Assembly (NCBI RefSeq): GCF_017313765.1
Contig: NZ_JAFLNC010000002.1
Span: 186,001-250,000 of the forward strand
From: Sneathiella sedimenti
Lineage (GTDB): Bacteria; Pseudomonadota; Alphaproteobacteria; Sneathiellales; Sneathiellaceae
DNA length: 64,000 bases
Direction of reading: 5' to 3'
Below the pieces are notes generated by a model, which worked only from the letters and a program-made list of their open reading frames with translations, was not told the origin of the DNA and did not search any database. Numbering within the stretch: the first letter of the stretch is position 1; the number at the start of each line of letters is the position of its first letter. Positions 29,313 to 52,060 of this stretch are shown here, piece by piece. The translations under genes were made by a program, and so were the position numbers.

Positions 29313-29337
29313 ATCAACCAACCAGTTGGATGATATT
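29313..29337. promoter_or_regulatory. TetR-type operator, site A (upstream of isochorismatase operon)
   Basis: The 25-bp element reads ATCAACCAAC, three bases CAG, then TTGGATGATATT. It contains the dyad CCAAC-N2-GTTGG. It matches site B at 52036-52060 at 22 of 25 positions, differing only in the three central bases, and matches site C (51247-51268, inverted) over 19 consecutive bases. AATAAT (29304-29309), a possible -10 box, lies just upstream in both A and B. It ends about 80 bp before the isochorismatase start. Confidence 0.75.
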
Positions 29338-29416
29338 GACAAAATTTAGATTTATAAGTTAGCTTTGTGAAACGGTTAGGGGCAACAACAAAACATAACT
29401 GCGATAGGGGTAAACT

Positions 29417-30040
29417 GTGGCACCATTGCTTGAAGTAGACAGCCCGGCTCTGTTGATCGTTGATATGCAAAATGATTTCGTGCGTCCCGGCGCTCCCTTG
29501 GAAGTACCGGATGCCCGGACAACAATCGCGCCGCATCAATCTCTCATTTCCGCATTTCGTTCCGCCAAGCGCCCGATTTTTTACACCAAATTCCTTTCCA
29601 CACCCTACAGGTCGCTGCTCTGGAACTGGTCCCCGGAATGTGAAGAAGACACGAAATGTTGCTGGAAAGGTCATCAACGGCTCTATGAAGATCGAAACGA
29701 GCCTCTTGAATGTACCGACATCATCAGTGAAATTTATCCAGAGGCCGGGGATCATATTATCGAGAAGTTCGGCTATGGCGCCTTCCATGGCACAGCCTTG
29801 GCAGACATGCTTCACTCGCTGGATATAAAATCGGTCATCGTCACCGGTACAGTCACACAAATATGTGTCGAGGAAACAGCCCGGGAATCCTTTCACCATG
29901 GCTTCAAAACGGTCATGGTTACGGATGCCGTTTCATCATTTGCCCCGAATCTGCAGGCCGCTACACTGGAAAATTTCGCCATGAAATTTGGCTGGGTCGC
30001 CACCGCCGAAGATGTACTGACACGGATGAAACATGCGTAG
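29417..30040 (+). CDS. Isochorismatase-family cysteine hydrolase
   Basis: This 207-aa protein has the cysteine hydrolase triad Asp16 (LLIVDMQNDF), Lys117 (IIEKFGYGAF) and Cys150 (VTQICVEETAR). The family includes isochorismatase, nicotinamidase, N-carbamoylsarcosine amidase, ureidoacrylate hydrolase (RutB) and biuret hydrolase; the context with an ABC importer and a nitrilase-like enzyme favours amide or ureide hydrolysis. The start is a GTG at 29417 with AGGGG upstream. It overlaps the first permease gene by eight bases. The TetR-type operator at 29313-29337 sits in its promoter region. Confidence 0.9.
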   Translation: MAPLLEVDSPALLIVDMQNDFVRPGAPLEVPDARTTIAPHQSLISAFRSAKRPIFYTKFLSTPYRSLLWNWSPECEEDTKCCWKGHQRLYEDRNEPLECTDIISEIYPEAGDHIIEKFGYGAFHGTALADMLHSLDIKSVIVTGTVTQICVEETARESFHHGFKTVMVTDAVSSFAPNLQAATLENFAMKFGWVATAEDVLTRMKHA

Positions 30041-30977
30041 CCCGTTCACATCCTTACTCAGCAGCAAATACGGGATAATTGTCCTGTTGGGACTGACGGT
30101 GCTGTTCGCCTTTATATTCGTGCCGGAGTTCGGGACGGTAAATAACCTTACCAACATTGCCATCCAGTCCGCGCCGCTGGCGATCCTGGCAATTGGCCAG
30201 ACGGTCGTTATCATTGCCGGCCTTATCGACCTCTCGGTCGGTATGCTGCTCGGCCTTATCGTCGTCATCATCGCAGACCTTATGCAAGGGGAGTCAAGCA
30301 TGACGGTCGTTGCCATTCTGGCCGCCCTTGGACTGGGTGGTGGTGTCGGGATGATCAACGGCCTGCTCAATAACCTGCTTCGTATTCATCCGCTCATATT
30401 GACATTCGGGATGCTCAGCATCCTGCAAGGCTTGATCTTCGTTTATACGGACAGGAGTGTAGGGCAGGTATCGTCCGAGTTTTCCTGGATGGCTAACGGG
30501 ACAGTCATAGGGGTGCCGTTTGCCATCATCTTGCTGATGTTTGTCGCGCTCCTCACTTCATTCCTGTTGTATAAAACACGCCTTGGCGCCCATATCTTTG
30601 CGGTCGGCGGCGGGGAAGAACAGGCCCGTCGCGCGGGCATCATGACGGGGCGGGTCAAGATTTGGGCCTTCATTATTTCCGGGGTATCCGCGGGCGTGGC
30701 CGGTATGCTGGTCGCGGGACGTCTCGGGACCGGATATCCCAATGCAGGTGTCGGATATGAACTTGACGCCATTGTTGCCGTTGTTTTGGGAGGCACCTCA
30801 CTCGCTGGCGGCCGCGGCAGCATACTCGGGACCATTGCGGCGGTTTTTGTTCTCGGTGTTGCCAGCAACATATTGAATCTTATGGAAATATCGTCCTTTG
30901 TTCAGATTTTCGTTAAGGGTCTGATCGTCGTCATTGCCATACTCCTCAACCAGCCAAAAAGGATTATCGCGTCATGA
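30033..30977 (+). CDS. RbsC-like ABC transporter permease (1)
   Basis: This 314-aa permease of the BPD_transp_2 family has about eight to ten membrane segments. Typical motifs are VVIIAGLIDLSVGMLLGLI near the start and DAIVAVVLGGTSLAGGRGSILGTIAAVFVLG near the end. It overlaps the isochorismatase gene by eight bases and the second permease by four (ATGA), so the operon is tightly coupled. Together with the second, non-identical permease it would form a heterodimeric channel of a ribose/autoinducer-2-type importer. Confidence 0.92.
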   Translation: MRSPFTSLLSSKYGIIVLLGLTVLFAFIFVPEFGTVNNLTNIAIQSAPLAILAIGQTVVIIAGLIDLSVGMLLGLIVVIIADLMQGESSMTVVAILAALGLGGGVGMINGLLNNLLRIHPLILTFGMLSILQGLIFVYTDRSVGQVSSEFSWMANGTVIGVPFAIILLMFVALLTSFLLYKTRLGAHIFAVGGGEEQARRAGIMTGRVKIWAFIISGVSAGVAGMLVAGRLGTGYPNAGVGYELDAIVAVVLGGTSLAGGRGSILGTIAAVFVLGVASNILNLMEISSFVQIFVKGLIVVIAILLNQPKRIIAS

Positions 30978-31951
30978 GCGACAGAATGGGCGCCGAGATA
31001 GATGGGGTTCAGACGAAAATCTGGCGATGGGCCAGTTCCAACGCAATCTGGGTCGTTCTGGCCTTGCTGTTCGCGATTGCGGCGCTTCTTTCTGATGCAT
31101 TTCTGCGCCCTGTCTATATTTTCAATGTCGTCCGTCAGGCGGCGCCGGTCGGGATTGCTGCTATCGGGGTGACCCTGGTGATGATCCTCGGGGGGGTTGA
31201 TCTGTCGGTCGGGGCGGTTATTTCCCTGACGGCTGTCTTAACGGCTGTACTGATGGATGGCCAGGTAGCAAACATTCCTCTCGCCGTGACGGTCGCCCTC
31301 GCGGCCGGGGCCTGTATCGGTGGGATCAACGGGACCCTGATTGCCTATAACCGCATTTCGCCGTTCATTCTGACACTTGGAATGGCAGTCGTGGTGACGG
31401 GCATGACACAAATCTATTCCGGGGGAACAGCGCGAGGGATCGTCTCTCCTGGGTTCCGGGAATTCTTCAACTACAGGATTGGCGGAATCGTCCCCGTTCT
31501 TGCGCTCACCTTTCTTGGACTCGCGCTGCTGGGCGTAAGGTTACAGCAAACAACAAAATTCTGTCGCAATCTTTATCTTATCGGGAGTAACCCTCAGGCC
31601 GCGGAGCTTTCCGGGCTGCCCGTCAAAAGAATAACCATTTTCGCCTACGCCCTTTCCGGTCTGATGGGGGCAATGGCGGGCATCGCACTGCTGGCCCGTT
31701 CAGGGGTTTCGAGCACATTTGCTGGCCGCGGGCTGGAGTTTGATGTACTGGCCGCGGTCATCCTCGGCGGCACCACATTCCAAGGCGGCCGTGGCGGGAT
31801 TGGCGGCACGATTGCCGCTGTATTTGTTCTGTTGATTGCGTTCAATTTAGTCAACATCGTTGGGCTTGATTACAACGCTCAACTTATCGTCAAGGGCGCC
31901 ATAATCATTATCGCGTCTTCAGCATACATCTACTTTAAAAAAGTGCGCTAG
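30974..31951 (+). CDS. RbsC-like ABC transporter permease (2)
   Basis: This 325-aa BPD_transp_2 permease has VTLVMILGGVDLSVGAVISLTAVL and LEFDVLAAVILGGTTFQGGRGGIGGTIAAVFVL, parallel to the motifs of permease 1. A pair of distinct permeases is typical of Lsr-, Rhi- or Yph-like systems rather than ribose itself, where RbsC is a homodimer. It is followed 35 bp later by the binding-protein gene. Confidence 0.92.
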   Translation: MSDRMGAEIDGVQTKIWRWASSNAIWVVLALLFAIAALLSDAFLRPVYIFNVVRQAAPVGIAAIGVTLVMILGGVDLSVGAVISLTAVLTAVLMDGQVANIPLAVTVALAAGACIGGINGTLIAYNRISPFILTLGMAVVVTGMTQIYSGGTARGIVSPGFREFFNYRIGGIVPVLALTFLGLALLGVRLQQTTKFCRNLYLIGSNPQAAELSGLPVKRITIFAYALSGLMGAMAGIALLARSGVSSTFAGRGLEFDVLAAVILGGTTFQGGRGGIGGTIAAVFVLLIAFNLVNIVGLDYNAQLIVKGAIIIIASSAYIYFKKVR

Positions 31952-33068: not shown

Positions 33069-34538
33069 ATGTTGCTTGAAATCAAAGGATTGACGAAGCG
33101 ATTCCCTGGTGTGTTGGCACTGGAGGGCGTGGATTTTACTGCCGAGGCAGGCGAAGTCCACGCTCTTGTCGGTGCCAATGGTGCCGGAAAAAGCACCTTG
33201 ATGAACCTGTTGTCCGGTGTCTTCCGGCCGACTGAAGGCGAAATAGCGATCGATGGTAAATCTGTCCAGCTCTCGTCACCAGGCGTGGCTGTCAGTTGCG
33301 GCGTCAGCACGGTTTACCAGGAATTCAGCTCGATCCCGCAATTAACGGTCGCCCAGAACATCTTTCTGGGGCGGGAACCATGCGGGAAATCCGGTATACT
33401 CAGTCATAAAAAGATGTGCGCAGACGCTCGCGCTATACTGGATAAATATAATCTTGGGCTGGATGAAACGAGTTTGGTCGAGGAATTGTCCGTCGCCAAT
33501 TTGCAATTGGTTGAAATTGCACGGGCTCTGTCAGTGGAGTCCCGAATTCTCATTCTTGACGAGCCTACAGCGGTTCTATCGCTTCCCGAACAGGAAAATC
33601 TTTTCCGGATTATTGAACAGCTGAAACAGCAGGGAATGCTGATCCTCTATGTATCGCATCGCATGGAGGAAATATTCTCAATTTCCGATCGGGTTACCGT
33701 CCTGCGCGATGGCAGAAAAATTGATACTGTTCGGACGGCGGATATCTCGCCGGCGGATATCATCCGGATGATGATCGGTCATGATATAATCCAGTCCTCC
33801 GGCCTCGCCGCGGCGGCAGGGGGAGAGCCTATTCTGGAGGTCAAGTTTAAGGACAGCCGTCGTGGTTTCAAGGTCATAAAGGGCGAGATCCTTGGCGTCG
33901 CCGGCCTTGTCGGGGCAGGGCGCACCCGTCTCGCGCGGAAGCTTATCGGGCTTGAAGGCAATGATGAAATGGACATCATTCTGCACGGGAAGAAAGTTAA
34001 TCCCGGTTCGCCGCAAGACGCTATTCAGCACGGCATTGTTTATCTGACCGAGAACAGGAAATATGACGGCCTGTTCGCCAACCTTTCGGTTCTAAAGAAT
34101 ACGACGGCGTCCGCACTGGAAAGATTTTCCTCGTTCGGCTTCCTGCAGCAGAAGAATGAAAGAGAGGCCGGCACCGAGATACTCGATCGGCTGCATCTTG
34201 TCGCAAGCTCTGTTGACGTTCCGATTAACGAACTTAGCGGGGGAAACCAGCAAAAGGCGATTTTCGGCCGTGCCTTGCTTTGTAATCCCAGTGTCCTGAT
34301 ATGCGATGAGCCGACCCGGGGGGTCGACGTCGGCGCCAAGGAAGAAATCTATCAATTGCTGGTCGGGCTCGCCGAACAGGGGGTTGCTATTATATTTATA
34401 TCGTCTGAAATGAAGGAACTGTTTGCCGCGGCGCATCGCTTGCTGGTTCTGCATGAAGGTGACATCGTTGAGGATTTGCCGACCGATCAGCTGACCGAAG
34501 AGAAAGTGCTTCAGGCGGCCACCGGCACACTGAACTGA
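33069..34538 (+). CDS. RbsA-like ABC transporter ATPase (two nucleotide-binding domains)
   Basis: This 489-aa protein is a tandem ABC ATPase. Domain 1 has Walker A GANGAGKSTLMN (about 37-48), a degenerate signature ELSVANLQLVEIARAL and Walker B RILILDEPTAVL. Domain 2 has a degenerate P-loop GLVGAGRTRLAR, a good signature LSGGNQQKAIFGRAL and CDEPTRGVDVGAKEEIY. This asymmetry is normal for RbsA/MglA proteins. It energises the two permeases encoded upstream. The next gene, a nitrilase-like hydrolase, begins within about 30 bases. Confidence 0.94.
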   Translation: MLLEIKGLTKRFPGVLALEGVDFTAEAGEVHALVGANGAGKSTLMNLLSGVFRPTEGEIAIDGKSVQLSSPGVAVSCGVSTVYQEFSSIPQLTVAQNIFLGREPCGKSGILSHKKMCADARAILDKYNLGLDETSLVEELSVANLQLVEIARALSVESRILILDEPTAVLSLPEQENLFRIIEQLKQQGMLILYVSHRMEEIFSISDRVTVLRDGRKIDTVRTADISPADIIRMMIGHDIIQSSGLAAAAGGEPILEVKFKDSRRGFKVIKGEILGVAGLVGAGRTRLARKLIGLEGNDEMDIILHGKKVNPGSPQDAIQHGIVYLTENRKYDGLFANLSVLKNTTASALERFSSFGFLQQKNEREAGTEILDRLHLVASSVDVPINELSGGNQQKAIFGRALLCNPSVLICDEPTRGVDVGAKEEIYQLLVGLAEQGVAIIFISSEMKELFAAAHRLLVLHEGDIVEDLPTDQLTEEKVLQAATGTLN

Positions 34539-34570
34539 ACATGACTGATTTATATTTTGAAGGGTCCGAA

Positions 34571-35395
34571 ATGACTGAGGGTATCAAGCTGAAACTGGCT
34601 GTCGTGCAAATGGATTGCGCCGTTAGAGATGTCACGTCGAATTTGCAGAAAATTGACAGGTTCGCGCAGACAGCGGGCGCGCAGAATGTCAATCTCGCCA
34701 TATTCCCCGAGTGTGCGACAACAGGGTATTTTATCTCCGAGGATCTGGCGGATCTTGCAGAGCCAACAGATGGACCCACGGATCAGAAGCTTTCTGAAAT
34801 CGCGGCCAGGGCTGGCATTCATCTTGCGGTGGGGACGGTCGTTGCAGACGGTGGTAAGTTTTATAACGCGCAGGTAATTTTCTCGCCTTCCGGGAAACGG
34901 TTGGCCACATATTACAAGGCGCATTTATTCTCGACGGAACGTCTCTCTTATGAGCTTGGAAATACCCCGACAGTTGTCGATACCGATCTGGGGCGTATCG
35001 GCATGACGATTTGCTATGACATGATTTTTCCGGACTACTTTCGAACCCTCGTCAATAAGGGGGCGGAGATCGTGATTAACAGCACGAACTGGATCGGCGA
35101 CTCTTACCAGCAGGATGTCTGGGGTTGGAGTGGGGTGACGACGCAAGGTATGGCGGCCACAAGAGCGTTGGAGAACGGCGTGATCGTTGCGATGGCCAAC
35201 CGTACAGGTAACGAGATGGGTTTTGACAGCCTCGGCCATTCCTGCATTATCGCCCCTTCTGGCCATATCCTGGCCTCGATACCCAAGGGCGAAGATATCG
35301 CCATAGCAGATATTGATTTTAAGGGTGAAGACCTGGAGAAATGGCGCTCGATCGCGACCTATCGCCTGGACCGGCGACCGGAGCTCTACGACTGA
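34571..35395 (+). CDS. Carbon-nitrogen hydrolase (nitrilase-family amidohydrolase)
   Basis: This 274-aa protein has the Glu-Lys-Cys triad: Glu47 (AIFPECATTGY), Lys116 (TYYKAHLF) and Cys148 (MTICYDMIFPDYFR). The family includes aliphatic amidases, beta-ureidopropionase and N-carbamoyl amidases; the sequence has no clear nitrilase-specific feature. I chose the ATG at 34571 because GAAGGG lies six bases upstream; an earlier in-frame ATG at 34541, two bases after the ATPase stop, has no ribosome site but could be used by coupling. As last gene of the isochorismatase-ABC operon it probably hydrolyses a second C-N bond of the imported compound. Confidence 0.9.
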   Translation: MTEGIKLKLAVVQMDCAVRDVTSNLQKIDRFAQTAGAQNVNLAIFPECATTGYFISEDLADLAEPTDGPTDQKLSEIAARAGIHLAVGTVVADGGKFYNAQVIFSPSGKRLATYYKAHLFSTERLSYELGNTPTVVDTDLGRIGMTICYDMIFPDYFRTLVNKGAEIVINSTNWIGDSYQQDVWGWSGVTTQGMAATRALENGVIVAMANRTGNEMGFDSLGHSCIIAPSGHILASIPKGEDIAIADIDFKGEDLEKWRSIATYRLDRRPELYD

Positions 35396-35594
35396 TATGC
35401 TTTCGCTGTACATCATAATTTTCTGACCACCTGCTGTCCCGACCTTTGACAATTTCCGGTATGAGGCGGCTACTGCCCGCGCATATACCTCGCAAAAATA
35501 TTCTCGCTCAGACACTGCTATTCACCTAGAATTGAATAATCCGGGAACCTTTCCGTTTGCCTGTCGTCTAACAGGGCAAAAAGGAATGATTGAT

Positions 35595-36275
35595 ATGCCC
35601 CTGAAGCACGCTGAATTTGAAATGCTGGATGATGTCGAACTCGCACGCTATGCGGCAGCTCGAAACCCGCATGCGGTACGCACGATTACCACCCGCAATA
35701 ACCAGCGACTGTTTCGAACGGCATGGAGCGTCCTTCGCAATCATGCGGATGCGGAAGAGGTGGTCCAGGAGGCTTACTTGAAAGCGTTTAATTCTCTTGA
35801 AACGTTCAATGGCAACTCGAGCCTGTCGACGTGGCTTACCCGTATTGTTTTCAACGCGGCAATAGATCGGAGGCGAGCCATACAGCGTCGTCATACCGAA
35901 TATCTGCAGCAGGATATCGCCATATTGGAAGAATATCAGGCGCGATATGAGGCACAGTCTAGTCCTCGATCGCCGGAATCCGAGCTGCTACGCAAGCAGT
36001 TTTCCGAACTCCTGAAATCTGTCATTGCGCGCTTGCCTGACGAATTTCGCTCGGTCTTTGTTCTTCGGGATATCGAAGGATTGTCTGTAGCCGAAACGGC
36101 CGACGTGCTGCAGATAAAGGAAGCCACTGTCAAGTCGCGGCTTTTTAGAGCCCGCCGCGAACTTCGCAAGCACCTGGAACTCAAGTTCGAGACCATTGCC
36201 TCTGATGCAATCGCCTTCGCCGGTGCTGACTGTGATGCCATGACCAACCGTGTTCTAGCTGCCCTTAATATCTAG
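35595..36275 (+). CDS. ECF-type RNA polymerase sigma factor (sigma-70 family)
   Basis: This 226-aa sigma factor has region 2 (LFRTAWSVLRNHADAEEVVQEAYLKAFNSLETFNGNSSLSTWLTRI) and region 4 (RLPDEFRSVFVLRDIEGLSVAETADVLQIKEATVKSRLFRARRELRKHL). A charged linker of about 45 residues separates them. I chose the ATG at 35595 because AAGGA lies nine bases upstream; a TTG at 35532 and an ATG at 35586 are weaker. No recognisable anti-sigma gene is adjacent; instead a Tat-exported ferritin-like protein and a cytochrome c follow. That suggests control of a redox- or metal-stress regulon by a non-standard partner. Confidence 0.92.
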   Translation: MPLKHAEFEMLDDVELARYAAARNPHAVRTITTRNNQRLFRTAWSVLRNHADAEEVVQEAYLKAFNSLETFNGNSSLSTWLTRIVFNAAIDRRRAIQRRHTEYLQQDIAILEEYQARYEAQSSPRSPESELLRKQFSELLKSVIARLPDEFRSVFVLRDIEGLSVAETADVLQIKEATVKSRLFRARRELRKHLELKFETIASDAIAFAGADCDAMTNRVLAALNI

Positions 36276-36303
36276 TTTCAACCCCCTACCAAGGAGTATT
36301 TCG

Positions 36304-36876
36304 ATGTCAAATAACAGTATGATTCTGTCTTCCCGCCGCGCATTTCTCGGTGCAACTGGTAAAACATTGTCGGCGACGGCTCTCGCCATGGTTGTAGGAA
36401 GTAATATAAAAACGGCTGCCGCCGCCGATGCGTCGCAGGATATTGAAATTCTAAACGCGGCCATTGCCCTGGAGCATGAAGGCATTGCTGCCTATCAGAT
36501 TGCCGCGACCAGTGGACTTTTGGACCCAGCCGTGGTCGATATCGGTGTAACATTTCAGGGGCATCACAAGGGCCATCGGGATGTCCTGGTGAAAGCTGTG
36601 GAAACGCTTGGCGGTAAGCCCGCGGAAGAAAAATCCCTTGGCGCCTATGCCGCAGATCTAAAGGCCTCTAGCCTTAAAAATCAGGTAGATGTGCTGCGTC
36701 TTGCCTTGGACCTGGAGCGTGGCGCGGCGAATGCCTATCTCGGACTGATCCCCTCTCTAGGCCCGGATTATCACCAGGTCGCCGCTCAAATGGCCGGAGA
36801 TGAGGCTTTCCACGCGGCCATACTGGCGAATGCACTCGGTCAGCCTATCCCCAAGGCGGCGTTAATGTTCGGCTAA
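36304..36876 (+). CDS. Tat-exported ferritin-like domain protein
   Basis: This 190-aa protein begins with a twin-arginine signal (SSRRAFLGATGKTLSATALAMVVG, Ala-rich cleavage region near residue 41). The mature part is a four-helix ferritin-like bundle with paired metal-ligand candidates: LEHEGIAAYQ, HHKGHRD, LDLERGAANAYL and MAGDEAFHAAIL. It may bind a diiron centre in the periplasm; iron storage, peroxide reduction or sensing are all possible. AAGGAG precedes the ATG. It lies 28 bp after the ECF sigma factor and 29 bp before the cytochrome c gene, so the three form an operon. Confidence 0.88.
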   Translation: MSNNSMILSSRRAFLGATGKTLSATALAMVVGSNIKTAAAADASQDIEILNAAIALEHEGIAAYQIAATSGLLDPAVVDIGVTFQGHHKGHRDVLVKAVETLGGKPAEEKSLGAYAADLKASSLKNQVDVLRLALDLERGAANAYLGLIPSLGPDYHQVAAQMAGDEAFHAAILANALGQPIPKAALMFG

Positions 36877-36905
36877 GTCAGCATTTCTTTCGATTAGACT
36901 TAAAC

Positions 36906-37376
36906 ATGAAAAAACTTTCAAATGTCATCCTGTGTTTCTCTGTGGTTCTGATATCCAGTAGCGTGGTTGCGAAAGATTCAGTCAACTCCTCCGGCCGAGA
37001 GATAACTCAGGTGACATCACAAGGAGACAGCGTTCCCCCTTACGCTGTCTCCGAACAACTCGTTGTCAAGGGCGAGGAGCTATACAAACGCCGTTGCGGC
37101 GGATGCCACTCCCTTGACAATAACCGGATCGGCCCCCGACATCGCGATGTATATGGGCGCAAGGCCGGTACTGTTGCGGATTATAAGTACAGTAAGGCAC
37201 TCAGAAATCTGGATGTGATCTGGACGGATCAAACACTGGATGAATGGCTGGTAAACCCAACCGCCTTCGCAAAGGGAACCTCCATGGGGTTCCGCCTGAA
37301 AAAGGCCGATGAAAGACACGCCATTATTGAATATCTGAAATTCCTGTCATCTGCGTCGTCCGCCAACGCACAATAG
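36906..37376 (+). CDS. Class I c-type cytochrome (cytochrome c2-like), periplasmic
   Basis: This 156-aa protein has an N-terminal signal (MKKLSNVILCFSVVLISSSVVA) and a single haem site CGGCH in LYKRRCGGCHSLDNNRIGPRHRDVYGRKAG. The Met ligand is likely in KGTSMGFRLKK, and a final helix DERHAIIEYLKFL is present. These features match small soluble electron carriers. As third gene of the sigma/ferritin/cytochrome operon it could carry electrons to or from the ferritin-like protein. The 23-bp gap to the convergent EamA gene has no terminator that I can see. Confidence 0.92.
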   Translation: MKKLSNVILCFSVVLISSSVVAKDSVNSSGREITQVTSQGDSVPPYAVSEQLVVKGEELYKRRCGGCHSLDNNRIGPRHRDVYGRKAGTVADYKYSKALRNLDVIWTDQTLDEWLVNPTAFAKGTSMGFRLKKADERHAIIEYLKFLSSASSANAQ

Positions 37377-39810: not shown

Positions 39811-40000
39811 TTTTCTCCCCGTTTATTTGCCTAAACTGCGGTGCCCGAAGAAGATACTAGCAGTTTTTATTCAAACGCAGTCCTAAAATATTCCGGGATA
39901 CTTTTTGTCTAAGTACCTGATCATTATACGAGAAAATATACATCCGTAGATGTGCGGGTCAAAGTGTAGGCGATCAAGAATTGAAGTAATTATATTTCGT

Positions 40001-40016
40001 ATTTAACCGGTTAAAT
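40001..40016. promoter_or_regulatory. Perfect LacI-type palindrome ATTTAACCGGTTAAAT
   Basis: The 16-bp sequence is fully self-complementary and has the central CG step expected of LacI/GalR operators (AACCGGTT). It lies upstream of the OtnK-like kinase gene and just downstream of the PAS and LacI genes. The LacI protein encoded at 40601-41626 is the obvious candidate binder. Confidence 0.6.
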
Positions 40017-40037
40017 ATTGTTAAAAAGAATTCAGCT

Positions 40038-41626: not shown

Positions 41627-41691
41627 ATGTGTAGAAATTTGATCCAAAATCAGGCTGAATTTTAAAATAGCTTACTCAAGTAATAGGAAAA

Positions 41692-42630: not shown

Positions 42631-42636
42631 GGGATG

Positions 42637-43950
42637 TTAGTCCTCTACAGGTTGAGAGTCAGGGGAGGGAGTAAAAACCAATCCGTCTCTACCGGCAAAT
42701 TTGGCGCGGGATCCCAAGGATTCTTCGATCCTCAAGACTTCATTCCACTTTGCCATGCGCTCGGATCGTGAAAAGGAACCAACCTTGAATTGCCCTGCGT
42801 CCCATCCTGTCGCGAGATGAGCAATAATCACATCTTCCGACTCGCCGGAACGGGCAGAGACAATCGCCCCCAGGCCGTTGGCTTTCGCAGCCTCAAGGGC
42901 CTCGCGCGTTTCTGTTATGGTCCCGGCCTGGTTAGGCTTGATGAGAACGGCCGTCAGCGCCTTATCTTTCGCAGCCTTAACCACCCGGGCTGCATTGGTG
43001 ACAAGATAGTCATCCCCGATGATCTGACATTTCGATCCGTATAGGCGCGTGAAAGTCTGGAATCCTTTCGTGTCATTCTCACCGAGCGGATCTTCAACCG
43101 ATAGTATCGGATAATTGTCCAACCAGTTTCCAAGAATTGCGATCCATTCGTCTGTGTCATATTGCTTGTTTCCGAGCGCGAGTGTGTAAACGCTATTCTC
43201 TTCAAATTCGGATGCGGCAACATCAAGGGATATCCCGATATCGACGCCGGGCTTGAAACCGGCCCTCTCTATCGAGACCACAAGGCTTTCCAGAACTTCC
43301 TCGTTCGATCGGAAGGCGGGCCAGTATCCGCCTTCGTCGGCGACGCCCTGCAGGCTTCCCCGTTCTTTCATAAGCAGGCCAGCGTGACGATATACTTCCG
43401 CCGTCCAATCGAGAGCTTCCGCAAAGGACGATGCACCCGGACACATGATCATAAAATCCTGTATGTCCACCCGTCTTGCCGCATGGGCGCCGCCGCCAAA
43501 AATCTGAATTTCCGGAAGAGGCATGCGAATGTCACTTTCCTGAGCCAGAAATTTCCAGAGCGGGGTTTTGTCGGCCGCGGCGCGGGCTTGCAGGACGGCC
43601 ATTGAAGTCGCAACAATTGCGTTGCCACCCAGTCTGCTGCGATTTGGTGTCCCGTCTAGCGTTGTCATGGCGCGATCGACTTCTTCCTGATTATCGGCAT
43701 CCAACCCTGAAATCCTGGGGCCGACTTCCTCATTGACCGCCGCGACGGCCCGTCGCACATCGAGACCCCCGAAGGCATGGCCCCCATCACGGAGATCAAC
43801 CGCTTCACCGCTTCCCATGGAGGCGCCGGCCGGGGCAATCGCCCGTCCGCGCGCACCGCAACAAAGCTGAACGTCAACCTCAACTGTTGGTCTACCGCGT
43901 GAGTCCCAGACCCGTCGTCCAAGAACAGAAGCAATCGTCGTATCAATCAT
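42637..43950 (-). CDS. Enolase paralogue with altered active site
   Basis: This 437-aa protein is enolase-like throughout (WDSRGRPTVEVDV, GVADEGGYWPAF, GDDYLVTNAARV, KPNQAGTITET, GQFKVGSFSRSERMAK). Metal ligands Asp243, Glu286 and Asp313, catalytic Lys338 and Glu206 are kept. However, the catalytic His of the canonical SHRSGETED is Ala366 (SARSGESED, codon 42853-42855), the canonical QEF Glu is Asp165, and the active-site loop SGAST reads AGASM. It is thus probably not the housekeeping glycolytic enzyme but acts on a related phospho-hydroxyacid. It overlaps the APH-like kinase gene by eight bases in a TRAP operon, which may supply its phosphorylated substrate. Confidence 0.9.
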   Translation of the reverse strand: MIDTTIASVLGRRVWDSRGRPTVEVDVQLCCGARGRAIAPAGASMGSGEAVDLRDGGHAFGGLDVRRAVAAVNEEVGPRISGLDADNQEEVDRAMTTLDGTPNRSRLGGNAIVATSMAVLQARAAADKTPLWKFLAQESDIRMPLPEIQIFGGGAHAARRVDIQDFMIMCPGASSFAEALDWTAEVYRHAGLLMKERGSLQGVADEGGYWPAFRSNEEVLESLVVSIERAGFKPGVDIGISLDVAASEFEENSVYTLALGNKQYDTDEWIAILGNWLDNYPILSVEDPLGENDTKGFQTFTRLYGSKCQIIGDDYLVTNAARVVKAAKDKALTAVLIKPNQAGTITETREALEAAKANGLGAIVSARSGESEDVIIAHLATGWDAGQFKVGSFSRSERMAKWNEVLRIEESLGSRAKFAGRDGLVFTPSPDSQPVED

Positions 43951-44947
43951 TCGCTAAATTCCTTGCCCATGAGTTTTTGAACTCAGAGAGCTGACTCGTC
44001 GTCGTTTTAATGAAGGGGAGGGCCGTATTTCTCACAAGATCTTTGGCATCCTCAGACTGAATGTATTCAACAGGAGATTTGCCATCAATTCGGGCAAGAA
44101 ACAGAGCGGGAAGCAATCTTGCTGTGCGCGCTTCAAGGTCCTTTACGGGCTCCCAATCGACTTTAGTAAAATAGGCAGTGTGGAGTGCGTCGAACGACGC
44201 GAGAAGCGCATCCTTCTTCTTTGGCACATGGACACACTTCAACAGCATGTGGTTCAAACAGAACGCAAGATCAAATGCAGGCTCCCCATACCAAGCACAT
44301 TCCGCGTCGAGAAAAATAGGTCCGGCTGTCTCAACCAGAATATTCTTTGGGCTGACATCTCCGTGTACGAGTGCACGCTTGGCAGAGAGAGTATCCGACG
44401 CGAGCTGGAGAAGCTGTTCCGATACCGACGGCTGGGCTTTTGCTGTTGCCTTCAGGTAGGGCTCGACCCTGAGTGCGTCAAACGTTTCTGGCACCATAAA
44501 TTTACTTGCGATCATGGCGGAATTAGCTGTCGCCTGATGTATCTTGCCGAGTGTTTCCCCGACTTTCGCGGCAAAGTAAATGTCCACGTCGCCACGCATC
44601 AACTGGTCTTTCCACGTCGGGCAATCCAGAAACTCCATGATGAACATTTTGGCGTCCGGTTCACAGTAAAGAATTTTCGGAACGGCATTCGGTGTGATTC
44701 CCGCAACTTCCCGGATCCAGTTGACCTCATTTACATTACGTGAGAGGGGGGCCTCCCAATGCTGCGACACTCTCAATTCCGGTAGCGCCTGCTTGAGAAC
44801 AAATATTCGTGACTCCGTGTCTATTCTCCATATGTCTGAAGAGATACCTCCGGTGAGTTTTTCTGCCCGAATATTTGACTCATCGGTAATCAGTTTGCTG
44901 CGCGACAGGAATTGCCGGGTTTCTGTATCAAGCATTTGAATTTCCAC
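43943..44947 (-). CDS. APH/choline-kinase-fold phosphotransferase
   Basis: This 334-aa protein has the aminoglycoside phosphotransferase fold. The N-lobe has a nucleotide loop KLTGGISSDIWRID and Lys in FVLKQA. The C-lobe has the catalytic loop LVHGDVSPKNILV and the metal Asp in IFLDAECAWYGEPAFDLAF. The family phosphorylates hydroxyls of small molecules, not only antibiotics. Here it sits between TRAP system 3 and an enolase paralogue with an overlap, so a hydroxy-acid or sugar kinase role is much more likely than resistance. It starts just seven bases after the DctM stop. Confidence 0.87.
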   Translation of the reverse strand: MEIQMLDTETRQFLSRSKLITDESNIRAEKLTGGISSDIWRIDTESRIFVLKQALPELRVSQHWEAPLSRNVNEVNWIREVAGITPNAVPKILYCEPDAKMFIMEFLDCPTWKDQLMRGDVDIYFAAKVGETLGKIHQATANSAMIASKFMVPETFDALRVEPYLKATAKAQPSVSEQLLQLASDTLSAKRALVHGDVSPKNILVETAGPIFLDAECAWYGEPAFDLAFCLNHMLLKCVHVPKKKDALLASFDALHTAYFTKVDWEPVKDLEARTARLLPALFLARIDGKSPVEYIQSEDAKDLVRNTALPFIKTTTSQLSEFKNSWARNLAND

Positions 44948-44953
44948 TCCCCA

Positions 44954-46297
44954 CTAGAACATTGTTTTTGGAAGAAGAAGAGATATGTCGGGAAACACGA
45001 TTATCAGATAGAGGACAACCAGGTCCGCCAAAATGAAAATTGCAGCCCCTTTAAATATCTGGTTCAGATCAACACTATCACCAACAACCGACTTGATAAC
45101 GAAAACATTTATGCCGACAGGGGGTGTTACTAATCCGACTTCGATCAATTTCACGATAACAATACCAAACCAGATCAAGTCATAACCAAGCGATTCAATG
45201 ATGGGGACCGCAAGCGGAAGAGTCAGTAGAAGGATGCCGATCGCATCCAGGAAGGTTCCGAGGACGAGGTAGAGAACACAGATCATCAGCATAACGAGAG
45301 CCGGGGAGAAGTTCTGTTCGGTTGTCCAGATGACAAGGTCGCTTGCGATATTCGTAATGCCCACAAAGGAGACCATCAGCTTTGCACCGATGGCGAGCAC
45401 AAAAATAATGGCGCATTGATAGGCCGTTTCCTGCAGAGCCTCTAAAAACGCCTCCAGAGACAGTCGTTTCAGCAAAAACCCGATAATGATAGCAATGGCG
45501 GCCGCGACTGCGGCTGATTCCGTTGCCGTGAGGAAACCGCTGTAAATTCCACCAATTACCACCACGGCAATCAGGGTAATTGGCCACATATTGAGGACGG
45601 CCTTTATCTGTTCGCTCGAGGTGCTGGTGATATGGTTCTCTGGAGCTGCGTTCGGCTTTATCCGGACCCACAGGAAAATAGTCACCACATACGCCAGCAC
45701 ACTGATGGCGCCGGGAATAATGCCTGCAACGAAAAGCTTCCCGATGGACTGCTCTGTAAAGACGCCGTAAATGACAAGCACCAGCGATGGCGGGATCAGG
45801 GAGCCGAGGGTGCCACCGGCGGCCACCGAGGCGGTCGCAAGAGACTTGCTGTATCCGAACTTTAGCATTTCTGGAACCGCAATTCTGCCCATCGCCGAAG
45901 CGCAGGCCATGCTGGATCCGGAGATTGAGGAGAAGCCGGCGCAACCGACGACGGAAGCAATCGCCAACCCGCCCGGCAACCGGGGAAGCAAAATGCGGAT
46001 GGCGTAAAAGAGGTCCGTGGTGAAACGGGCACGATGCGCAACATGTCCCAACACGATGAACAGGGGGACCATCGTAAAGGTATAGGTTTTGATAAATGAA
46101 AATGGGTCCGTCCCGAGAAATGCCTGAACTGGGCGTAAGGCTCGGCCAGGGTTAAAGGGCTGTCCGGCGGGCCAGGCAAAGATCAGGAACATGCCGATAA
46201 TGGCGACGGTGCATAAAGCAAATGCAATCGGTACACGCAGGAAAAGCAGGATCAGCAGCCCTACCAAGACGGCAATCGCAAGTGTAGTCGGGTCCAT
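44954..46297 (-). CDS. dctM: TRAP transporter large permease (system 3, DctM family)
   Basis: This 447-aa polytopic protein has PIAFALCTVAIIG, GFSSISGSSMACASAMGRIAVPEM, GGTLGSLIPPSLVLVIYG and VTPPVGINVFVIKS. These segments match the large permease of system 1 almost position by position (ACASAMGRI, GTLG-LIPPS, PPVG-NVF-I), so the two belong to one DctM subfamily, distinct from system 2. It is the channel for the organic acid handled by the kinase/enolase-like operon downstream. Confidence 0.94.
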   Translation of the reverse strand: MDPTTLAIAVLVGLLILLFLRVPIAFALCTVAIIGMFLIFAWPAGQPFNPGRALRPVQAFLGTDPFSFIKTYTFTMVPLFIVLGHVAHRARFTTDLFYAIRILLPRLPGGLAIASVVGCAGFSSISGSSMACASAMGRIAVPEMLKFGYSKSLATASVAAGGTLGSLIPPSLVLVIYGVFTEQSIGKLFVAGIIPGAISVLAYVVTIFLWVRIKPNAAPENHITSTSSEQIKAVLNMWPITLIAVVVIGGIYSGFLTATESAAVAAAIAIIIGFLLKRLSLEAFLEALQETAYQCAIIFVLAIGAKLMVSFVGITNIASDLVIWTTEQNFSPALVMLMICVLYLVLGTFLDAIGILLLTLPLAVPIIESLGYDLIWFGIVIVKLIEVGLVTPPVGINVFVIKSVVGDSVDLNQIFKGAAIFILADLVVLYLIIVFPDISLLLPKTMF

Positions 46298-46330
46298 TTT
46301 TATTTTAACCTTTCTGGGACAGTTTCTCGG

Positions 46331-46891
46331 CTACGAGAGATGTTCGGAGGGTTGCTGGATTTCGGGGGCTTTTTTCAATCCAAGGTCTTCGCAAAGATTC
46401 ATGAGGAGACGCAGGCAAAATAAGGCCAGGGCGATCACGAATACCAGCTTCGCGGGCCAGACCGGGAGGGCCAGTTCCCCTTCATAATATTGGCCGCTAT
46501 CCAGATCTTTGAGGACGCCAATCCAGACACACCATAGAATGGCCGAGAAAATCAACAGGGCGAGCAAATGCGCAAACGCGCTCAAGGGTTTGAGGAACTG
46601 CTGCGGCAGCCAGGATGTGAAGACCTCCACCTCAATATGACCCCGCCGCGCCGTCGCATAGGCGAAGGGAAGGGCGACAATCACTGGCATGAGGTTTTCG
46701 GCCAGAACCACATCATCCGGGATCGGCCAGTTAAAGAAAGTTCGGCCCAGAACGGAGATGCAAATGAGGGCAAGGAGAATAACAATCGTCAGCATGGAGA
46801 ACTTGAGAAATACCTGCTCAACACAGCCAACTGCTCGTTCGACAGGCGTGTTGCCTGCCGAACGACCGCTAAATCTGAAGCGAATCATCAA
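46331..46891 (-). CDS. dctQ: TRAP transporter small permease (system 3, DctQ family)
   Basis: This 186-aa membrane protein has four hydrophobic segments and the DctQ core LGRTFFNWPIPDDVVLAENLMPVIVALPFAYATARRGHIEVEVFTSWLP. The phrase IPDDV and the GHIEVEVFTSWLP segment parallel the system 1 subunit (IPDDV, AHIMVEVFTSHMP), again marking the two systems as paralogues. Its start overlaps the stop of the binding protein (ATGA, 46888-46891). Confidence 0.91.
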   Translation of the reverse strand: MMIRFRFSGRSAGNTPVERAVGCVEQVFLKFSMLTIVILLALICISVLGRTFFNWPIPDDVVLAENLMPVIVALPFAYATARRGHIEVEVFTSWLPQQFLKPLSAFAHLLALLIFSAILWCVWIGVLKDLDSGQYYEGELALPVWPAKLVFVIALALFCLRLLMNLCEDLGLKKAPEIQQPSEHLS

Positions 46892-48003
46892 TTGGTGCCT
46901 TTATTTGCTTCCCAAGGATAACCGTTTTTATCGAAATCAGCCTGATATTTTTCTATAAGAGCCTGATATTCATCCGCTACTTCCCGGGCGGGAAGCCCTT
47001 TCGCATTGACGGATTCAATCCACTCATCAGCAAGGCTGGCACCGTGTTTTTTGATCTGATCGAGCATTCCAGCAGGAGGGGCCGAGTAAATCACCTGATA
47101 CTCTTTTTCATCACTGGAAAGCTTAGCCTTCGCTGAACCGACACGTGCAAGATGATCCGAAACAACCCGTGCATTTAGGTCATCGGCGACTTCCCGGATC
47201 AGCTTTCTTTGGTCTTCGGTCAAGTCGCCCCAGAGGTCCTTGTTCATAATGATGCCATAGGCCATGACCAGACCAAAATCGAGTTCAACGACATATTTGG
47301 CCACTTCGTACTGACGGAAGCCTTCAATCGCGAGATGATAGATCTGGTTACAGTCAACAAGACCTGTTGAAAGAGCCTGATAGACCTCCGTCTGTGGCAT
47401 GGCAATCGTGGTTGCGCCCATACGCTTCAGCACGTCTGTGTAGGGTCCGCCCGTTCGAATTTTCAGGTCTTTCAGCTGATCAAGGGATGTAAGCGGGGCC
47501 TTGCAAATCAATTGAACAGCACCGGCATTGAAATTCCCGATATATTCAAGATTATTCTTCGCAAACTGCTGCTTAACGGCATCGTTGGTAGTCGCGAGTT
47601 CATAAATCGCCTGCTGGGCAACCCATAGGTTTGACGGGCCGACAAGCTGGTTTCCGACTTCATACAGATCCAATAAGCCAGGCGTATAGGAGGATACTAT
47701 TGTCCCCATATCTGCGAGACCAGCGCCAACAACCCGGGGCACGTCCGCCGGGGCACCAAGTGATCCACCCCAGTGAATATCCAGTCGGATGTCGCCATTA
47801 GAACGGGTTTCTAGCTGATCTTTAAACCAGTTCATGTTGTCACCCATGCCGCCTCTATTGGCGCCAAAATGTGCGTACCGGATCGTTATCGGATCAGCTG
47901 TGGCCGCAGGGGCAAATGCTGTAAGCGTTACCGCGGCGCTGGCAATTCCTGCCGCCAGGCACAATGCCCGGTAAGAATTTTTCAATGACAAATCAATTTT
48001 CAT
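46888..48003 (-). CDS. dctP: TRAP transporter substrate-binding protein (system 3, DctP family)
   Basis: This 371-aa secreted protein has a longer signal peptide ending near AATA (residue 36). It shows IRYAHFGANRGGMGDNMNWFKDQLE, DIHWGGSLGAPADVPRVVGAGLADMG, LKDLKIRTGGPYTDV with the ligand-binding Arg, and ALSTGLVDCNQIYHLA, parallel to the system 1 protein. The ligand is expected to be an organic acid; the downstream kinase, enolase-like and hydroxyacid dehydrogenase genes make a hydroxy acid likely. It is the first gene of the long minus-strand operon and faces the FAH gene across a 196-bp control region. Confidence 0.93.
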   Translation of the reverse strand: MKIDLSLKNSYRALCLAAGIASAAVTLTAFAPAATADPITIRYAHFGANRGGMGDNMNWFKDQLETRSNGDIRLDIHWGGSLGAPADVPRVVGAGLADMGTIVSSYTPGLLDLYEVGNQLVGPSNLWVAQQAIYELATTNDAVKQQFAKNNLEYIGNFNAGAVQLICKAPLTSLDQLKDLKIRTGGPYTDVLKRMGATTIAMPQTEVYQALSTGLVDCNQIYHLAIEGFRQYEVAKYVVELDFGLVMAYGIIMNKDLWGDLTEDQRKLIREVADDLNARVVSDHLARVGSAKAKLSSDEKEYQVIYSAPPAGMLDQIKKHGASLADEWIESVNAKGLPAREVADEYQALIEKYQADFDKNGYPWEANKGTN

Positions 48004-50107: not shown

Positions 50108-51103
50108 TTAATTGGCGGTCATCTTGATGTTTTTATCGAGATATTCATTCGTATAGGATTCTGCCGGATCAAACGGCTTTTCGACGCCGAAATAGGTTTC
50201 GATCAAATCATAGGTTTTCTGAATGCGATCCCCACTGAAAAAGCCGAGTCCCTCTGTCGTTGTGGTCTCGTCAGCCATGAGTTCCTTAACACGTGTCCAT
50301 TGATCATCCATGGCTTCTTTATTCAGGCCGCTGGCCACATCCATGAGTGACTTGATGCATGGATCCGGGTTTTCGACGCAGGCATGAAAGGCGCGTTGGG
50401 TAACGGCGGCAAATTTCGCGACGACTTCCGGGTTTTCTTTCATATAGGAAGTGTTGACGATGAAAGAGTTGCCGTAAGGGTTAATGCCGACCTCGCTCCA
50501 GCGAAGGGAGGCTAGGTCATCGCCAAATGCAGCCAATTTCGCATCATGACCATTGTAGAATTCACTGATGATATCAACGCGGTCTGCGGCGAGGGAGGGG
50601 TTCTTCGCAGGCGGCGCAAGATTAACGAAGCTGACAGACCCATCTTCCAGTCCGACCGCTTTTGCAAAGGCTGGCCAAAGAACACGGGCCGCATCACCTG
50701 GAGGATTCCCCAATGTATGGCCCGCGAAATCCTTCGGGCCTTTCATGCCGGATGACTTCTTCCAGTAAAGGGTCAGGGGAGAGTTGGCGTAAAGCACCAT
50801 GATTGCTGTAAGGTCGGCGCCCTTGGATTTGGCGACAAAGGCAGTGCCAAGTTCCGCTATCCCGAATTCAGAAGCGCCTGTCCCGACTGTCTGCGCCGCA
50901 AGGCCGGAGCCCTTTCCGCTATTTACCTTCAGGTCGATGCCGGCATCGGCATACCAGCCCTGATCAAGCGCATAATAAATTGGCGCATGATCTGCGCCTG
51001 GTGTCCAGTTAAGGATAAGACTTGCTTCTTCAGCAAAGCTGGCTGTCGCCGACAGGCTCAGCATGGCGGCGCCGGCGAACCAGGCTCCTAAAAGCTTCTT
51101 CAT
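50108..51103 (-). CDS. ABC transporter substrate-binding protein (NMT1/THI5-like)
   Basis: This 331-aa periplasmic protein has a signal peptide (MKKLLGAWFAGAAMLSLSATASFA). The mature part has LILNWTPGADHAPIYYALDQGWYADAGIDLKVNSGKGSGLAAQTVGTGASEFGIAELG, the standard opening of the SsuA/THI5 family, which binds pyrimidines, riboflavin, sulfonates or related aromatics. Its permease and ATPase lie on the opposite strand at 52084 and 55455. A TetR-type operator (site C, 51247-51268) lies just upstream of its TTGACT -35-like box, so it is probably under the same control. Confidence 0.92.
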   Translation of the reverse strand: MKKLLGAWFAGAAMLSLSATASFAEEASLILNWTPGADHAPIYYALDQGWYADAGIDLKVNSGKGSGLAAQTVGTGASEFGIAELGTAFVAKSKGADLTAIMVLYANSPLTLYWKKSSGMKGPKDFAGHTLGNPPGDAARVLWPAFAKAVGLEDGSVSFVNLAPPAKNPSLAADRVDIISEFYNGHDAKLAAFGDDLASLRWSEVGINPYGNSFIVNTSYMKENPEVVAKFAAVTQRAFHACVENPDPCIKSLMDVASGLNKEAMDDQWTRVKELMADETTTTEGLGFFSGDRIQKTYDLIETYFGVEKPFDPAESYTNEYLDKNIKMTAN

Positions 51104-51246: not shown

Positions 51247-51268
51247 TATATCCAACTGGTTGGTTGAT
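51247..51268. promoter_or_regulatory. TetR-type operator, site C (between binding-protein gene and TetR)
   Basis: Read on the minus strand it gives ATCAACCAACCAGTTGGAT, identical to site A over 19 bases. The core CCAAC-N2-GTTGG is a dyad. It ends 11 bp before the TetR start and lies next to a TTGACT box (complement of 51238-51243) for the divergent binding-protein gene, fitting autoregulation and joint control. Confidence 0.72.
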
Positions 51269-51279
51269 TTAGAGGGAAA

Positions 51280-51951
51280 ATGGGCAGAGTCTCGACGAAG
51301 CAAAATGAGAAGCCGTTGGCAGGTGAAAAACAACCGAAGAAGCGTGTACCGGGCGCCGCACGACGCAAGCTGCTGGCCGCTGGTCGGAAGGAATTCGCCA
51401 ATCGTGGGTTTGAGGGCGCCCGTGTTGATGAGATTGCAAAACGTGCAGGTGTGAACAAGCAGCTCGTCTATCACCACTTCGGAAACAAGGACGAGCTTTA
51501 TCGTCATGTGCTTGAGAGCATTTACCAGGATATCCGCAAGCGGGAACTGGCGCTTAAACTGGATACTCTTCCCCCGCTCGAGGCGATAAAGAAGCTGGTT
51601 GAGTTTTCCTTTGATCATACGGCGAAGAACAGGGATTTTGCGTCAATTCTGATTGATGAGAATGTCCATAAGGGTCGCCATATGAAGGAGATCCAGGATT
51701 TGGAATCCTTGCATTCGCCCTTGATCGCTGCGATTAGCCAGATATTGGAAAGAGGGGAGAAGGAGGGGTTGTTCCGCAGCGGGCTTAATCCGGAACAGCT
51801 GTATATCTCCATCGCCGCCCTCGGCTTCTTCTACTTCAGTAATATTTATACATTGTCCGCAATTTTTGGGCATAAACTTGATGCGCGCGAGAATATCGCA
51901 GAGAGAAAAGCGCATGTCGTCAAGTTGATTACGGACGCGATCGTCAAGTGA
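51280..51951 (+). CDS. TetR/AcrR-family transcriptional regulator
   Basis: This 223-aa regulator has the TetR helix-turn-helix AARRKLLAAGRKEFANRGFEGARVDEIAKRAGVNKQLVYHHFGNKDELYRHVLE and an all-helical ligand domain with FSFDHTAKNRDFASILIDENVHKGRHMKEI, which is RutR-like in style. RutR proteins respond to pyrimidines, consistent with, but not proof of, a pyrimidine-like effector. AGAGGG precedes the ATG. Operator-like copies occur just upstream (site C), before the permease operon (site B) and 22 kb away before the isochorismatase operon (site A), so this protein is the best candidate to control all three. Confidence 0.92.
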   Translation: MGRVSTKQNEKPLAGEKQPKKRVPGAARRKLLAAGRKEFANRGFEGARVDEIAKRAGVNKQLVYHHFGNKDELYRHVLESIYQDIRKRELALKLDTLPPLEAIKKLVEFSFDHTAKNRDFASILIDENVHKGRHMKEIQDLESLHSPLIAAISQILERGEKEGLFRSGLNPEQLYISIAALGFFYFSNIYTLSAIFGHKLDARENIAERKAHVVKLITDAIVK

Positions 51952-52007
51952 TGGAATGCGGGAAGCGACAGCCTTGATGTAAGCGACTAAGCCCTGACGT
52001 TCTGATA

Positions 52008-52060
52008 TTGACAGCAGATATTTTTATGTTCAATAATCAACCAACTGTTTGGATGATATT
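52008..52060 (+). promoter_or_regulatory. Promoter with overlapping TetR-type operator, site B
   Basis: TTGACA (52008-52013) and AATAAT (52032-52037), 18 bp apart, form a good sigma-70 promoter. The 25-bp operator (52036-52060) reads ATCAACCAAC, TGT, then TTGGATGATATT. It begins inside the -10 box and covers the start point, the ideal place for repression. Translation of the permease gene starts 24 bp further on. Confidence 0.75.

What the first reader, a model, noticed from the sequence alone, without database searches (positions are those of the whole stretch)
29313..52060. One TetR-type operator shared by two amide-hydrolase/ABC-import operons 22 kb apart
The element ATCAACCAAC, N3, TTGGATGATATT occurs at 29313-29337 (before the isochorismatase-RbsABC-nitrilase operon) and at 52036-52060 (before the permease-amidase-GNAT-ATPase operon), identical at 22 of 25 positions. 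An inverted copy at 51247-51268, 19 bases identical to the first, lies before the TetR gene. At the 52-kb site it overlaps the -10 box. This suggests a local regulon in which the RutR-like TetR at 51280 controls two importers and three C-N-bond hydrolases, perhaps stages of one nitrogen-compound pathway. That functional link is not obvious from gene order.
Basis: partly seen in the sequence, partly recalled or inferred. Interest (0 to 1): 0.85.

Follow-up and report, generated by a model that had tools for sequence, protein, structure and literature searches.

The report
One repressor site links two operons
A single DNA-binding switch protein appears to control two separate sets of uptake and amide-cutting genes in this bacterium, probably parts of one still-unknown nutrient-use pathway; nothing has yet been tested in the laboratory.

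Summary
In the 3.58-Mb genome the pattern (up to 3 mismatches) hits these three places and one other. All three sites recur in two sister species.

TetRs of this clade carry a Gln recognition helix, and 39 of 41 have this operator type beside them. Relatives with Arg have it in 0 of 69; control windows in 2 of 2120. This reflects only one or two evolutionary changes.

Two Mesorhizobium loci hold such a TetR with RbsABC, the isochorismatase, a more distant amidase and a GNAT, but no nitrilase and no NitT/TauT importer. In another genus a TetR of the same clade is divergent from the isochorismatase–RbsABC–nitrilase operon, with the operator between. The regulon is well supported; "one pathway" is likely but less secure. 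Substrate, inducer, direct binding, and the sign of control at the isochorismatase operon are unshown. The TetR is not RutR. A new regulon of a known kind.

The parts
29313..29334 (.). operator O1, 22-bp palindrome before the isochorismatase operon
   Evidence: counterpart in G007 and G019; same placement in G001 (L075) and Mesorhizobium L135
29336..29341 (+). TTGACA, candidate -35 box one base after O1; no acceptable -10 found
   Evidence: the consensus scan finds no + strand promoter-like site here
29417..30040 (+). isochorismatase-like cysteine hydrolase; D16, K117 and C150 align with the RutB-type triad
   Evidence: PF00857; alignments
30033..30977 (+). RbsC-type ABC permease 1
   Evidence: PF02653
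30974..31951 (+). RbsC-type ABC permease 2
   Evidence: PF02653
31987..33039 (+). RbsB-type substrate-binding protein
   Evidence: PF13407; nearest solved structures are mostly named sugar-binding proteins
33069..34538 (+). RbsA-type double ATPase
34541..35395 (+). nitrilase-superfamily C-N hydrolase; E57, K126 and C158 align with the triad positions of PH0642
   Evidence: PF00795; alignments
50108..51103 (-). NitT/TauT (NMT1/THI5-like) substrate-binding protein, divergent from tetR
51247..51268 (.). operator O2 between the substrate-binding-protein gene and tetR, ending 11 bases before the tetR start codon
51280..51951 (+). TetR-family regulator with recognition helix VNKQLVYHHF (Q clade)
52008..52037 (+). 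promoter-like site TTGACA-N18-AATAAT of the permease operon
   Evidence: both hexamers identical in 4 of 4 same-genus genomes aligned
52036..52057 (.). operator O3, overlapping the end of the -10 box
   Evidence: 22 of 22 bases identical in 4 of 4 same-genus genomes aligned
52084..52953 (+). NitT/TauT-type ABC permease
53043..54443 (+). amidase, above the NCBIfam NF004815 cut-off
54462..55316 (+). two-domain GNAT acetyltransferase (listed TTG start; a later ATG is likely)
55440..56222 (+). NitT/TauT-type ABC ATPase (listed TTG start; a later ATG is likely)

Best explanation
The element is the operator of the TetR protein encoded at 51280-51951, which runs a local regulon. The TetR dimer binds three 22-bp palindromes. 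With no ligand bound it blocks its own gene and probably the divergent substrate-binding-protein gene (O2), the permease-amidase-GNAT-ATPase operon by covering the -10/start region (O3), and most likely the isochorismatase-RbsABC-nitrilase operon by sitting against the -35 box (O1). A small molecule made or imported by the pathway releases it. The two operons then supply two importers and three C-N hydrolases, probably for one catabolic pathway; an amide-bearing, polar, sugar-acid-like substrate is a guess from enzyme families. Shown by sequence: the sites, their conservation, the near absence of other copies in this genome, and their match to the Q-helix TetR clade. Inferred: binding, repression, induction and the shared pathway. 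Unknown: the substrate.
For: Near-exclusivity in the genome. All three sites in G007 and G019, O2 and O3 counterparts in G012 and G014. In 25 genomes of the order the motif tracks the TetR: five genomes have both, G001 has a Q-clade TetR without the 22-mer at 2 mismatches, G008 has the 22-mer without it, 18 have neither (Fisher p = 6e-4). Helix and operator go together: Q-helix TetRs have the TCAACCA-NN-TGGTTGA type (at least 12 of 14) nearby in 39 of 41, R-helix TetRs in 0 of 69, 640-nt control windows in 2 of 2120. O3 overlaps a promoter-like site of 11 of 12. L127 and L135 (Mesorhizobium) join a Q-clade TetR with RbsABC, the isochorismatase, an amidase, GNAT, epimerase-like and DHDPS-like genes, with operators at several gene starts. 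In L075 (G001) a Q-clade TetR is divergent from the isochorismatase-RbsABC-nitrilase operon with an operator between. Across 385 class genomes, 6 of 7 with the isochorismatase (E up to 1e-50) also hold a TetR of this subfamily (30 of 385 do); without the own genus 4 of 5, p = 1e-4.
Against: No binding or expression data. No acceptable -10 after O1, so its placement could also suit activation. Five of 5 isochorismatase homologues outside the order in the class scan have no motif before them and no adjacent TetR. The Mesorhizobium loci lack a nitrilase and the NitT/TauT importer, their amidase is only 34-35% identical and in L127 scores best to another amidase model, and the stretch between RbsABC and tetR has only a sub-threshold element, 13 of 20. 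The helix/operator match reflects one or two changes on the tree, and the consensus was drawn up after seeing some of the same loci. Two of 41 Q-helix loci (L141, L149) lack the operator; L172, with Ala in the helix, has it outside the clade. Bradyrhizobium sites fit a 16-bp rather than a 22-bp spacing, and the 16-bp form is not rare in this genome (26 places, control 10). Class-wide, 6 of 10 genomes with the 22-mer have it at an unrelated place, and only 4 of the 10 class-scan genomes with a Q-helix TetR show it.
Confidence: 0.85

Rival explanations
1. The three sites are bound by another regulator, for example the second TetR paralogue 22 kb downstream, and the adjacent TetR is incidental.
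For: A paralogue (47% identity) lies at G000:C2:259331.
Against: The paralogue has an Arg-type helix and a different conserved site, AAGTATCCAGCAGGTTACTTA, before its own tctC-led cluster in 3 same-genus genomes; a fourth paralogue locus (L077, G020) showed no such site. G012 has TetR1 and its two sites with no match to the paralogue at 1e-30.
Confidence: 0.06
2. The shared operator is real, but the two operons serve different substrates that merely respond to one inducer.
For: The importers are of different families (RbsABC and NitT/TauT). The isochorismatase occurs without an adjacent TetR in 5 of 5 class-scan genomes outside the order. The Mesorhizobium loci hold no nitrilase and no NitT/TauT importer, and a different amidase.
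Against: L127 and L135 still join RbsABC and the isochorismatase with GNAT, epimerase-like and DHDPS-like genes that elsewhere go with the NitT/TauT importer. Co-occurrence in genomes where the genes lie on different contigs.
Confidence: 0.3
3. TetR acts as an activator at the isochorismatase operon and as a repressor at its other two sites.
For: O1 ends one base before TTGACA, and the operator with one base before TTGAC recurs in G007, G019, L075 (G001) and L135.
Against: Most TetR proteins repress (general knowledge). In L135 and L127 the operator before the DHDPS-like gene overlaps a TTGACA, which suits blocking.
Confidence: 0.12
4. The similarity is a chance or recent-duplication artefact without function.
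For: Within the window alone there are only three sites.
Against: 0 in 100 shuffles. Flanks of O1 and O3 differ between species while the cores are kept. The sites are palindromic and lie before genes.
Confidence: 0.02

Closest known systems
RutR regulon, pyrimidine use (PMC10891134 and PMC5343134: passages found by search terms, not whole texts)
   Same: TetR family; RutR is the best of 18 NCBIfam models for this protein; a palindromic operator of similar size (about 16 bp for RutR); control of a RutB-like cysteine hydrolase
   Different: score 53 against a cut-off of 368 bits; the RutR box (TTGACCA-NN-TGGTCAA, recalled, not seen in a call) scores only 9 of 14 beside this tetR; a rut gene set was not searched for
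TrtA/BiuH/AtzF triuret-biuret pathway (PMC7948467: abstract and passages)
   Same: isochorismatase-like hydrolase working with an amidase-family enzyme
   Different: this isochorismatase scores 78 against the BiuH cut-off of 370; this amidase passes NF004815 and scores 153 against the allophanate hydrolase cut-off of 511
Comparative-genomic regulons of Proteobacteria, RegPrecise (PMC5343134: passages)
   Same: a local catabolic regulon inferred from operator conservation
   Different: the words amidase, nitrilase and isochorismatase do not occur in the main text of that paper; its supplements and the RegPrecise database were not seen

Membership tests
RutR (TIGR03613) | profile score above the curated cut-off | tested here: not met
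   53.2 against 368 bits
RutR | operator TTGACCA-NN-TGGTCAA (consensus recalled) | tested here: not met
   best 9 of 14 beside the window tetR
RutR | uracil as ligand, rutA-G gene set under control | not tested
   no binding assay possible; rut genes not searched for
TetR family repressor | TetR-type homology | tested here: met
   18 NCBIfam regulator models, 105 distinct PDB sequences at E 0.001 or better
TetR family repressor | palindrome next to its own gene and at a target promoter | tested here: met
   positions of O2 and O3
TetR family repressor | binding and ligand-dependent release | not testable with these tools
   no assay
Isochorismatase-like hydrolase | PF00857 and Asp-Lys-Cys triad | tested here: met
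   D16, K117 and C150 aligned
Biuret hydrolase BiuH / RutB | equivalog cut-off | tested here: not met
   78.1 of 370 and 76.7 of 378 bits
Nitrilase superfamily | PF00795 and Glu-Lys-Cys triad | tested here: met
NF004815 amidase | equivalog cut-off | tested here: met
   582.5 against 506 bits

The most novel reading that the evidence does not exclude
A pair of sister TetR regulators, insulated from each other by a recognition-helix change (Gln versus Arg) and a matching operator change (TCAACCA versus GTAACCA half-sites), divides one undescribed catabolic pathway in this genome. TetR1 runs two importers and three C-N hydrolases. TetR2, 22 kb away, runs a TctABC importer with the genome's only detected epimerase-like and DHDPS-like enzymes, which in other bacteria stand beside a TetR1-type regulator. 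Modules have passed between the two regulators across Alphaproteobacteria.
Probability: 0.35. Interest if true: 0.6.

Novelty: new member of a known kind. Interest (0 to 1): 0.42.

Why it matters
It gives a concrete, testable three-site regulon for uncharacterised amide hydrolases and two orphan importers, and ties together two gene sets that gene order alone does not connect. The paralogous pair with matched helix and operator differences offers a natural case for studying how TetR copies become insulated. The pathway and its substrate are open. The regulatory logic itself is ordinary.

Tried and rejected
RutR identity: rejected on score and operator. A wider regulon from the 16-bp form of the motif: not discriminating (26 places against 10 in the control), so not used. 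G008, which looked like a genome with sites and no TetR: both hits lie inside open reading frames, one of them cysN/C-like. Class-wide 22-mer scan: 10 of 385 genomes match. Four match at Q-helix TetR loci or their operons (G000, G019, G225, G339); six at unrelated places, 3 inside open reading frames and 3 between them. Isochorismatase homologues in G379, G302, G209, G208 and G116: no motif before them and no TetR beside them; L098 (G379) has one 16-bp match about 8 kb away. In G379, G302 and G209 the gene is divergent from a GMC-oxidoreductase-like gene, judged by its N-terminal sequence only. Substrate from solved structures: only broad classes, mostly sugar-binding for RbsB, NMT1/THI5-like for the other binding protein, N-carbamoyl-type hydrolases for the isochorismatase. 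Literature: searches (7 of 7 papers listed; 20 of 49; 0 papers; 20 of 33; 4 of 4; 6 of 6) listed no paper on this regulon, judged from titles and abstract starts, in one open-licence library. No structure prediction was run, as it would not test binding.

Limits of the counts; 121 TetR rows, of which 5 identical ones were dropped (L065, L137, L080, L128, L170); 41 Q, 69 R, 6 other or missing (1 with type A, 1 with type B, 4 with neither). The Q set includes the window and loci seen before the consensus was fixed. One search used 115 rows of at least 150 residues. One search scored at most 7 candidates per genome. In the per-genus figure, genus g167 counts as having the TetR although one of its three isochorismatase genomes (G379) lacks it.
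Full report
OBSERVATION. The two direct copies agree at 22 of 25 positions, and the inverted copy shares 19 bases with the first. No match with up to 3 mismatches appears in 100 dinucleotide shuffles of the window. In the whole 3.58-Mb genome, ATCANCCAACNNNTTGGNTGAT with up to 3 mismatches is found at these three places and one more that matches on one strand only; the reversed control pattern gave 3 forward and 1 reverse matches. The element is an imperfect 22-bp palindrome, a size that suits a TetR dimer.

GENES. O1 precedes an isochorismatase-like hydrolase, two RbsC-type permeases, an RbsB-type binding protein, an RbsA-type ATPase and a nitrilase-superfamily hydrolase. The catalytic residues of both hydrolases are kept in alignment with solved relatives. 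O2 lies between tetR and a divergent NitT/TauT-type binding-protein gene. O3 precedes the permease, an amidase above the NF004815 cut-off, a two-domain GNAT protein and the ATPase. So O2 and O3 together stand before all parts of the second importer.

PROMOTERS. O3 overlaps the last two bases of the -10 in TTGACA-N18-AATAAT. Both hexamers and the 22 operator bases are identical in four of four same-genus genomes aligned, while other positions vary. O2 ends 11 bases before the tetR start codon; G007 is identical to the window in O2, G019 and G012 differ at one position each. O1 ends one base before TTGACA at 29336-29341. In the alignment of G000, G007 and G019 the operator plus TATTGAC is the main conserved block, and one base between operator and TTGAC recurs in G001 (L075) and Mesorhizobium L135. 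No acceptable -10 was found after O1, so repression there is likely but activation is not excluded.

CONSERVATION IN THE ORDER. Of 25 genomes, 8 have a TetR match at 1e-30; five of these (own genome included) hold an orthologue at 53% identity or more. The 22-mer with up to 2 mismatches occurs in 6 genomes: those five and G008, whose two hits lie inside open reading frames. The isochorismatase occurs in 4 of 25 genomes. Three of these (G000, G007, G019) have the operator before it. The fourth (G001, another genus) has its own Q-clade TetR divergent from the isochorismatase-RbsABC-nitrilase operon with ATCAACCAAACGGTTGGACATC between; this scores 15 of 20. The two modules lie about 12 kb apart in G019 and 15 kb in G007, against 22 kb here.

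HELIX AND OPERATOR. In the loci from the named-genome scan, the order and class scans and plasmids, two operator types appear beside TetRs of this subfamily: A (TCAACCA-NN-TGGTTGA and the 22-bp form seen here) and B (GTAACCA-NN-TGGTTAC). Among non-redundant TetRs with Gln at the position of Gln61 (NKQL), 39 of 41 have type A (at least 12 of 14) within the tested stretches and none has type B. Among those with Arg, 0 of 69 have A and 31 of 69 have B; 38 of 69 have neither. In 2120 random 640-nt windows of the same loci, A occurs in 2 and B in 24. On a tree of 115 rows, 40 of the 41 Q proteins form one supported clade; the other (L169) sits on a long branch, and L172 (Ala) has type A outside the clade. 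The correlation therefore rests on one or two events, and it is partly circular, since the consensus was drawn from some of these loci.

MODULES IN OTHER BACTERIA. In Bradyrhizobium and others the core is: binding protein divergent from tetR-permease-NAD-epimerase-like-GNAT-DHDPS-like-ATPase. Two Mesorhizobium loci join parts of both modules: L127 (about 18.5 kb) and L135 (about 13 kb, cut at its left edge) hold a GMC oxidoreductase, an amidase, the epimerase-like and GNAT genes, RbsABC (50-58% identity), a Q-clade TetR, the DHDPS-like gene and the isochorismatase (54 and 58%); L127 also has an aldehyde dehydrogenase. Operators lie before the DHDPS-like gene in both (16 and 17 of 20), before the isochorismatase clearly in L135 (18 of 20) and weakly in L127 (15 of 20), and before the GMC gene and the aldehyde dehydrogenase in L127 (16 and 17 of 20). 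Limits: no nitrilase and no NitT/TauT binding protein or permease was found in either locus at E up to 1e-3, the amidase is 34-35% identical to the window's and in L127 scores best to another amidase model, and between RbsABC and tetR there is only an element of 13 of 20. Even so, this is the best evidence that the two operons belong to one metabolic system.

SECOND REGULATOR. In the own genome the only epimerase-like and DHDPS-like genes found (E up to 1e-5) flank a second TetR at C2:259331, beyond the window, in a TctABC/sugar-epimerase cluster. That TetR has the Arg helix, and a B-like site AAGTATCCAGCAGGTTACTTA is conserved before the tctC gene in G000, G007 and G019; a fourth locus, L077 of G020, showed none. 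B-like sites also stand before several genes of L076 of G001, where TctABC, epimerase-like, GNAT, binding protein, DHDPS-like, permease and ATPase genes share one locus with an Arg-helix TetR.

CO-OCCURRENCE. In the class scan, 6 of 7 genomes with the isochorismatase have a TetR of the subfamily (30 of 385 overall); leaving out the own genus, 4 of 5 (p = 1e-4); counted by genus, 3 of 3 (p = 3e-4). In those four genomes the TetR is of the Arg type and lies on another contig than the isochorismatase.

AGAINST. Five of 5 isochorismatase homologues outside the order in the class scan lack the motif before them and an adjacent TetR. Two Q-type loci lack the operator. Class-wide, 6 of 10 genomes with the 22-mer have it at unrelated places, and the 22-mer is seen in only 4 of the 10 class-scan genomes with a Q-helix TetR. 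The 16-bp form alone cannot define the regulon. Nothing here shows binding.

VERDICT. A local TetR regulon of three sites and two importer/hydrolase modules is well supported by comparison. The shared-pathway reading is likely but less secure. The substrate is unknown; an amide-bearing sugar-acid-like compound is a guess from enzyme families only. The kind of system is known. No paper on this regulon was seen in six literature searches (two of them listed only 20 of 49 and 20 of 33 papers) of one open-licence library.

Noticed in passing
G000:C2:259331-259936 (L066:9331-9936), 9 kb past the window's end: A second TetR of the same subfamily with an Arg-type recognition helix, in a TctABC/epimerase-like/DHDPS-like/DUF993 cluster, with its own conserved B-like site before tctC in three genomes.
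   Followed up: partly
window 38545-48003 (-): Cluster of a DUF1537-type kinase, LacI regulator, 2-hydroxyacid dehydrogenase, an enolase paralogue, an APH-family kinase and TRAP transporter parts lying between the two regulated modules; most of it gave no match between them in G007 and G019.
   Followed up: partly
window 24539-29260 (+): A Y-family polymerase-like gene (IMS domains) followed by a DnaE-type polymerase III alpha gene directly upstream of the isochorismatase operon; looks like an ImuB/DnaE2-type mutagenesis cassette (label recalled).
   Followed up: no
window 35532-37376 (+): ECF sigma factor, Ferritin_2 protein and cytochrome c genes just after the nitrilase gene; the sigma factor gene follows the nitrilase gene in G007 and G019 too.
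   Followed up: no
window 56598-63058 (+): GntR regulator, CoA-transferase family III, two carboxyltransferase-domain proteins and an NMT1_3 binding protein; kept beside the second module in G007 but not found there in the G019 stretch read.
   Followed up: no
L210:1501-1522 (G362:C28:7353-7374): A good palindrome ATCAACCAAACGGTTGGTTTAT between open reading frames, before a short one; the 3-kb locus was not searched for a TetR of this subfamily.
   Followed up: no
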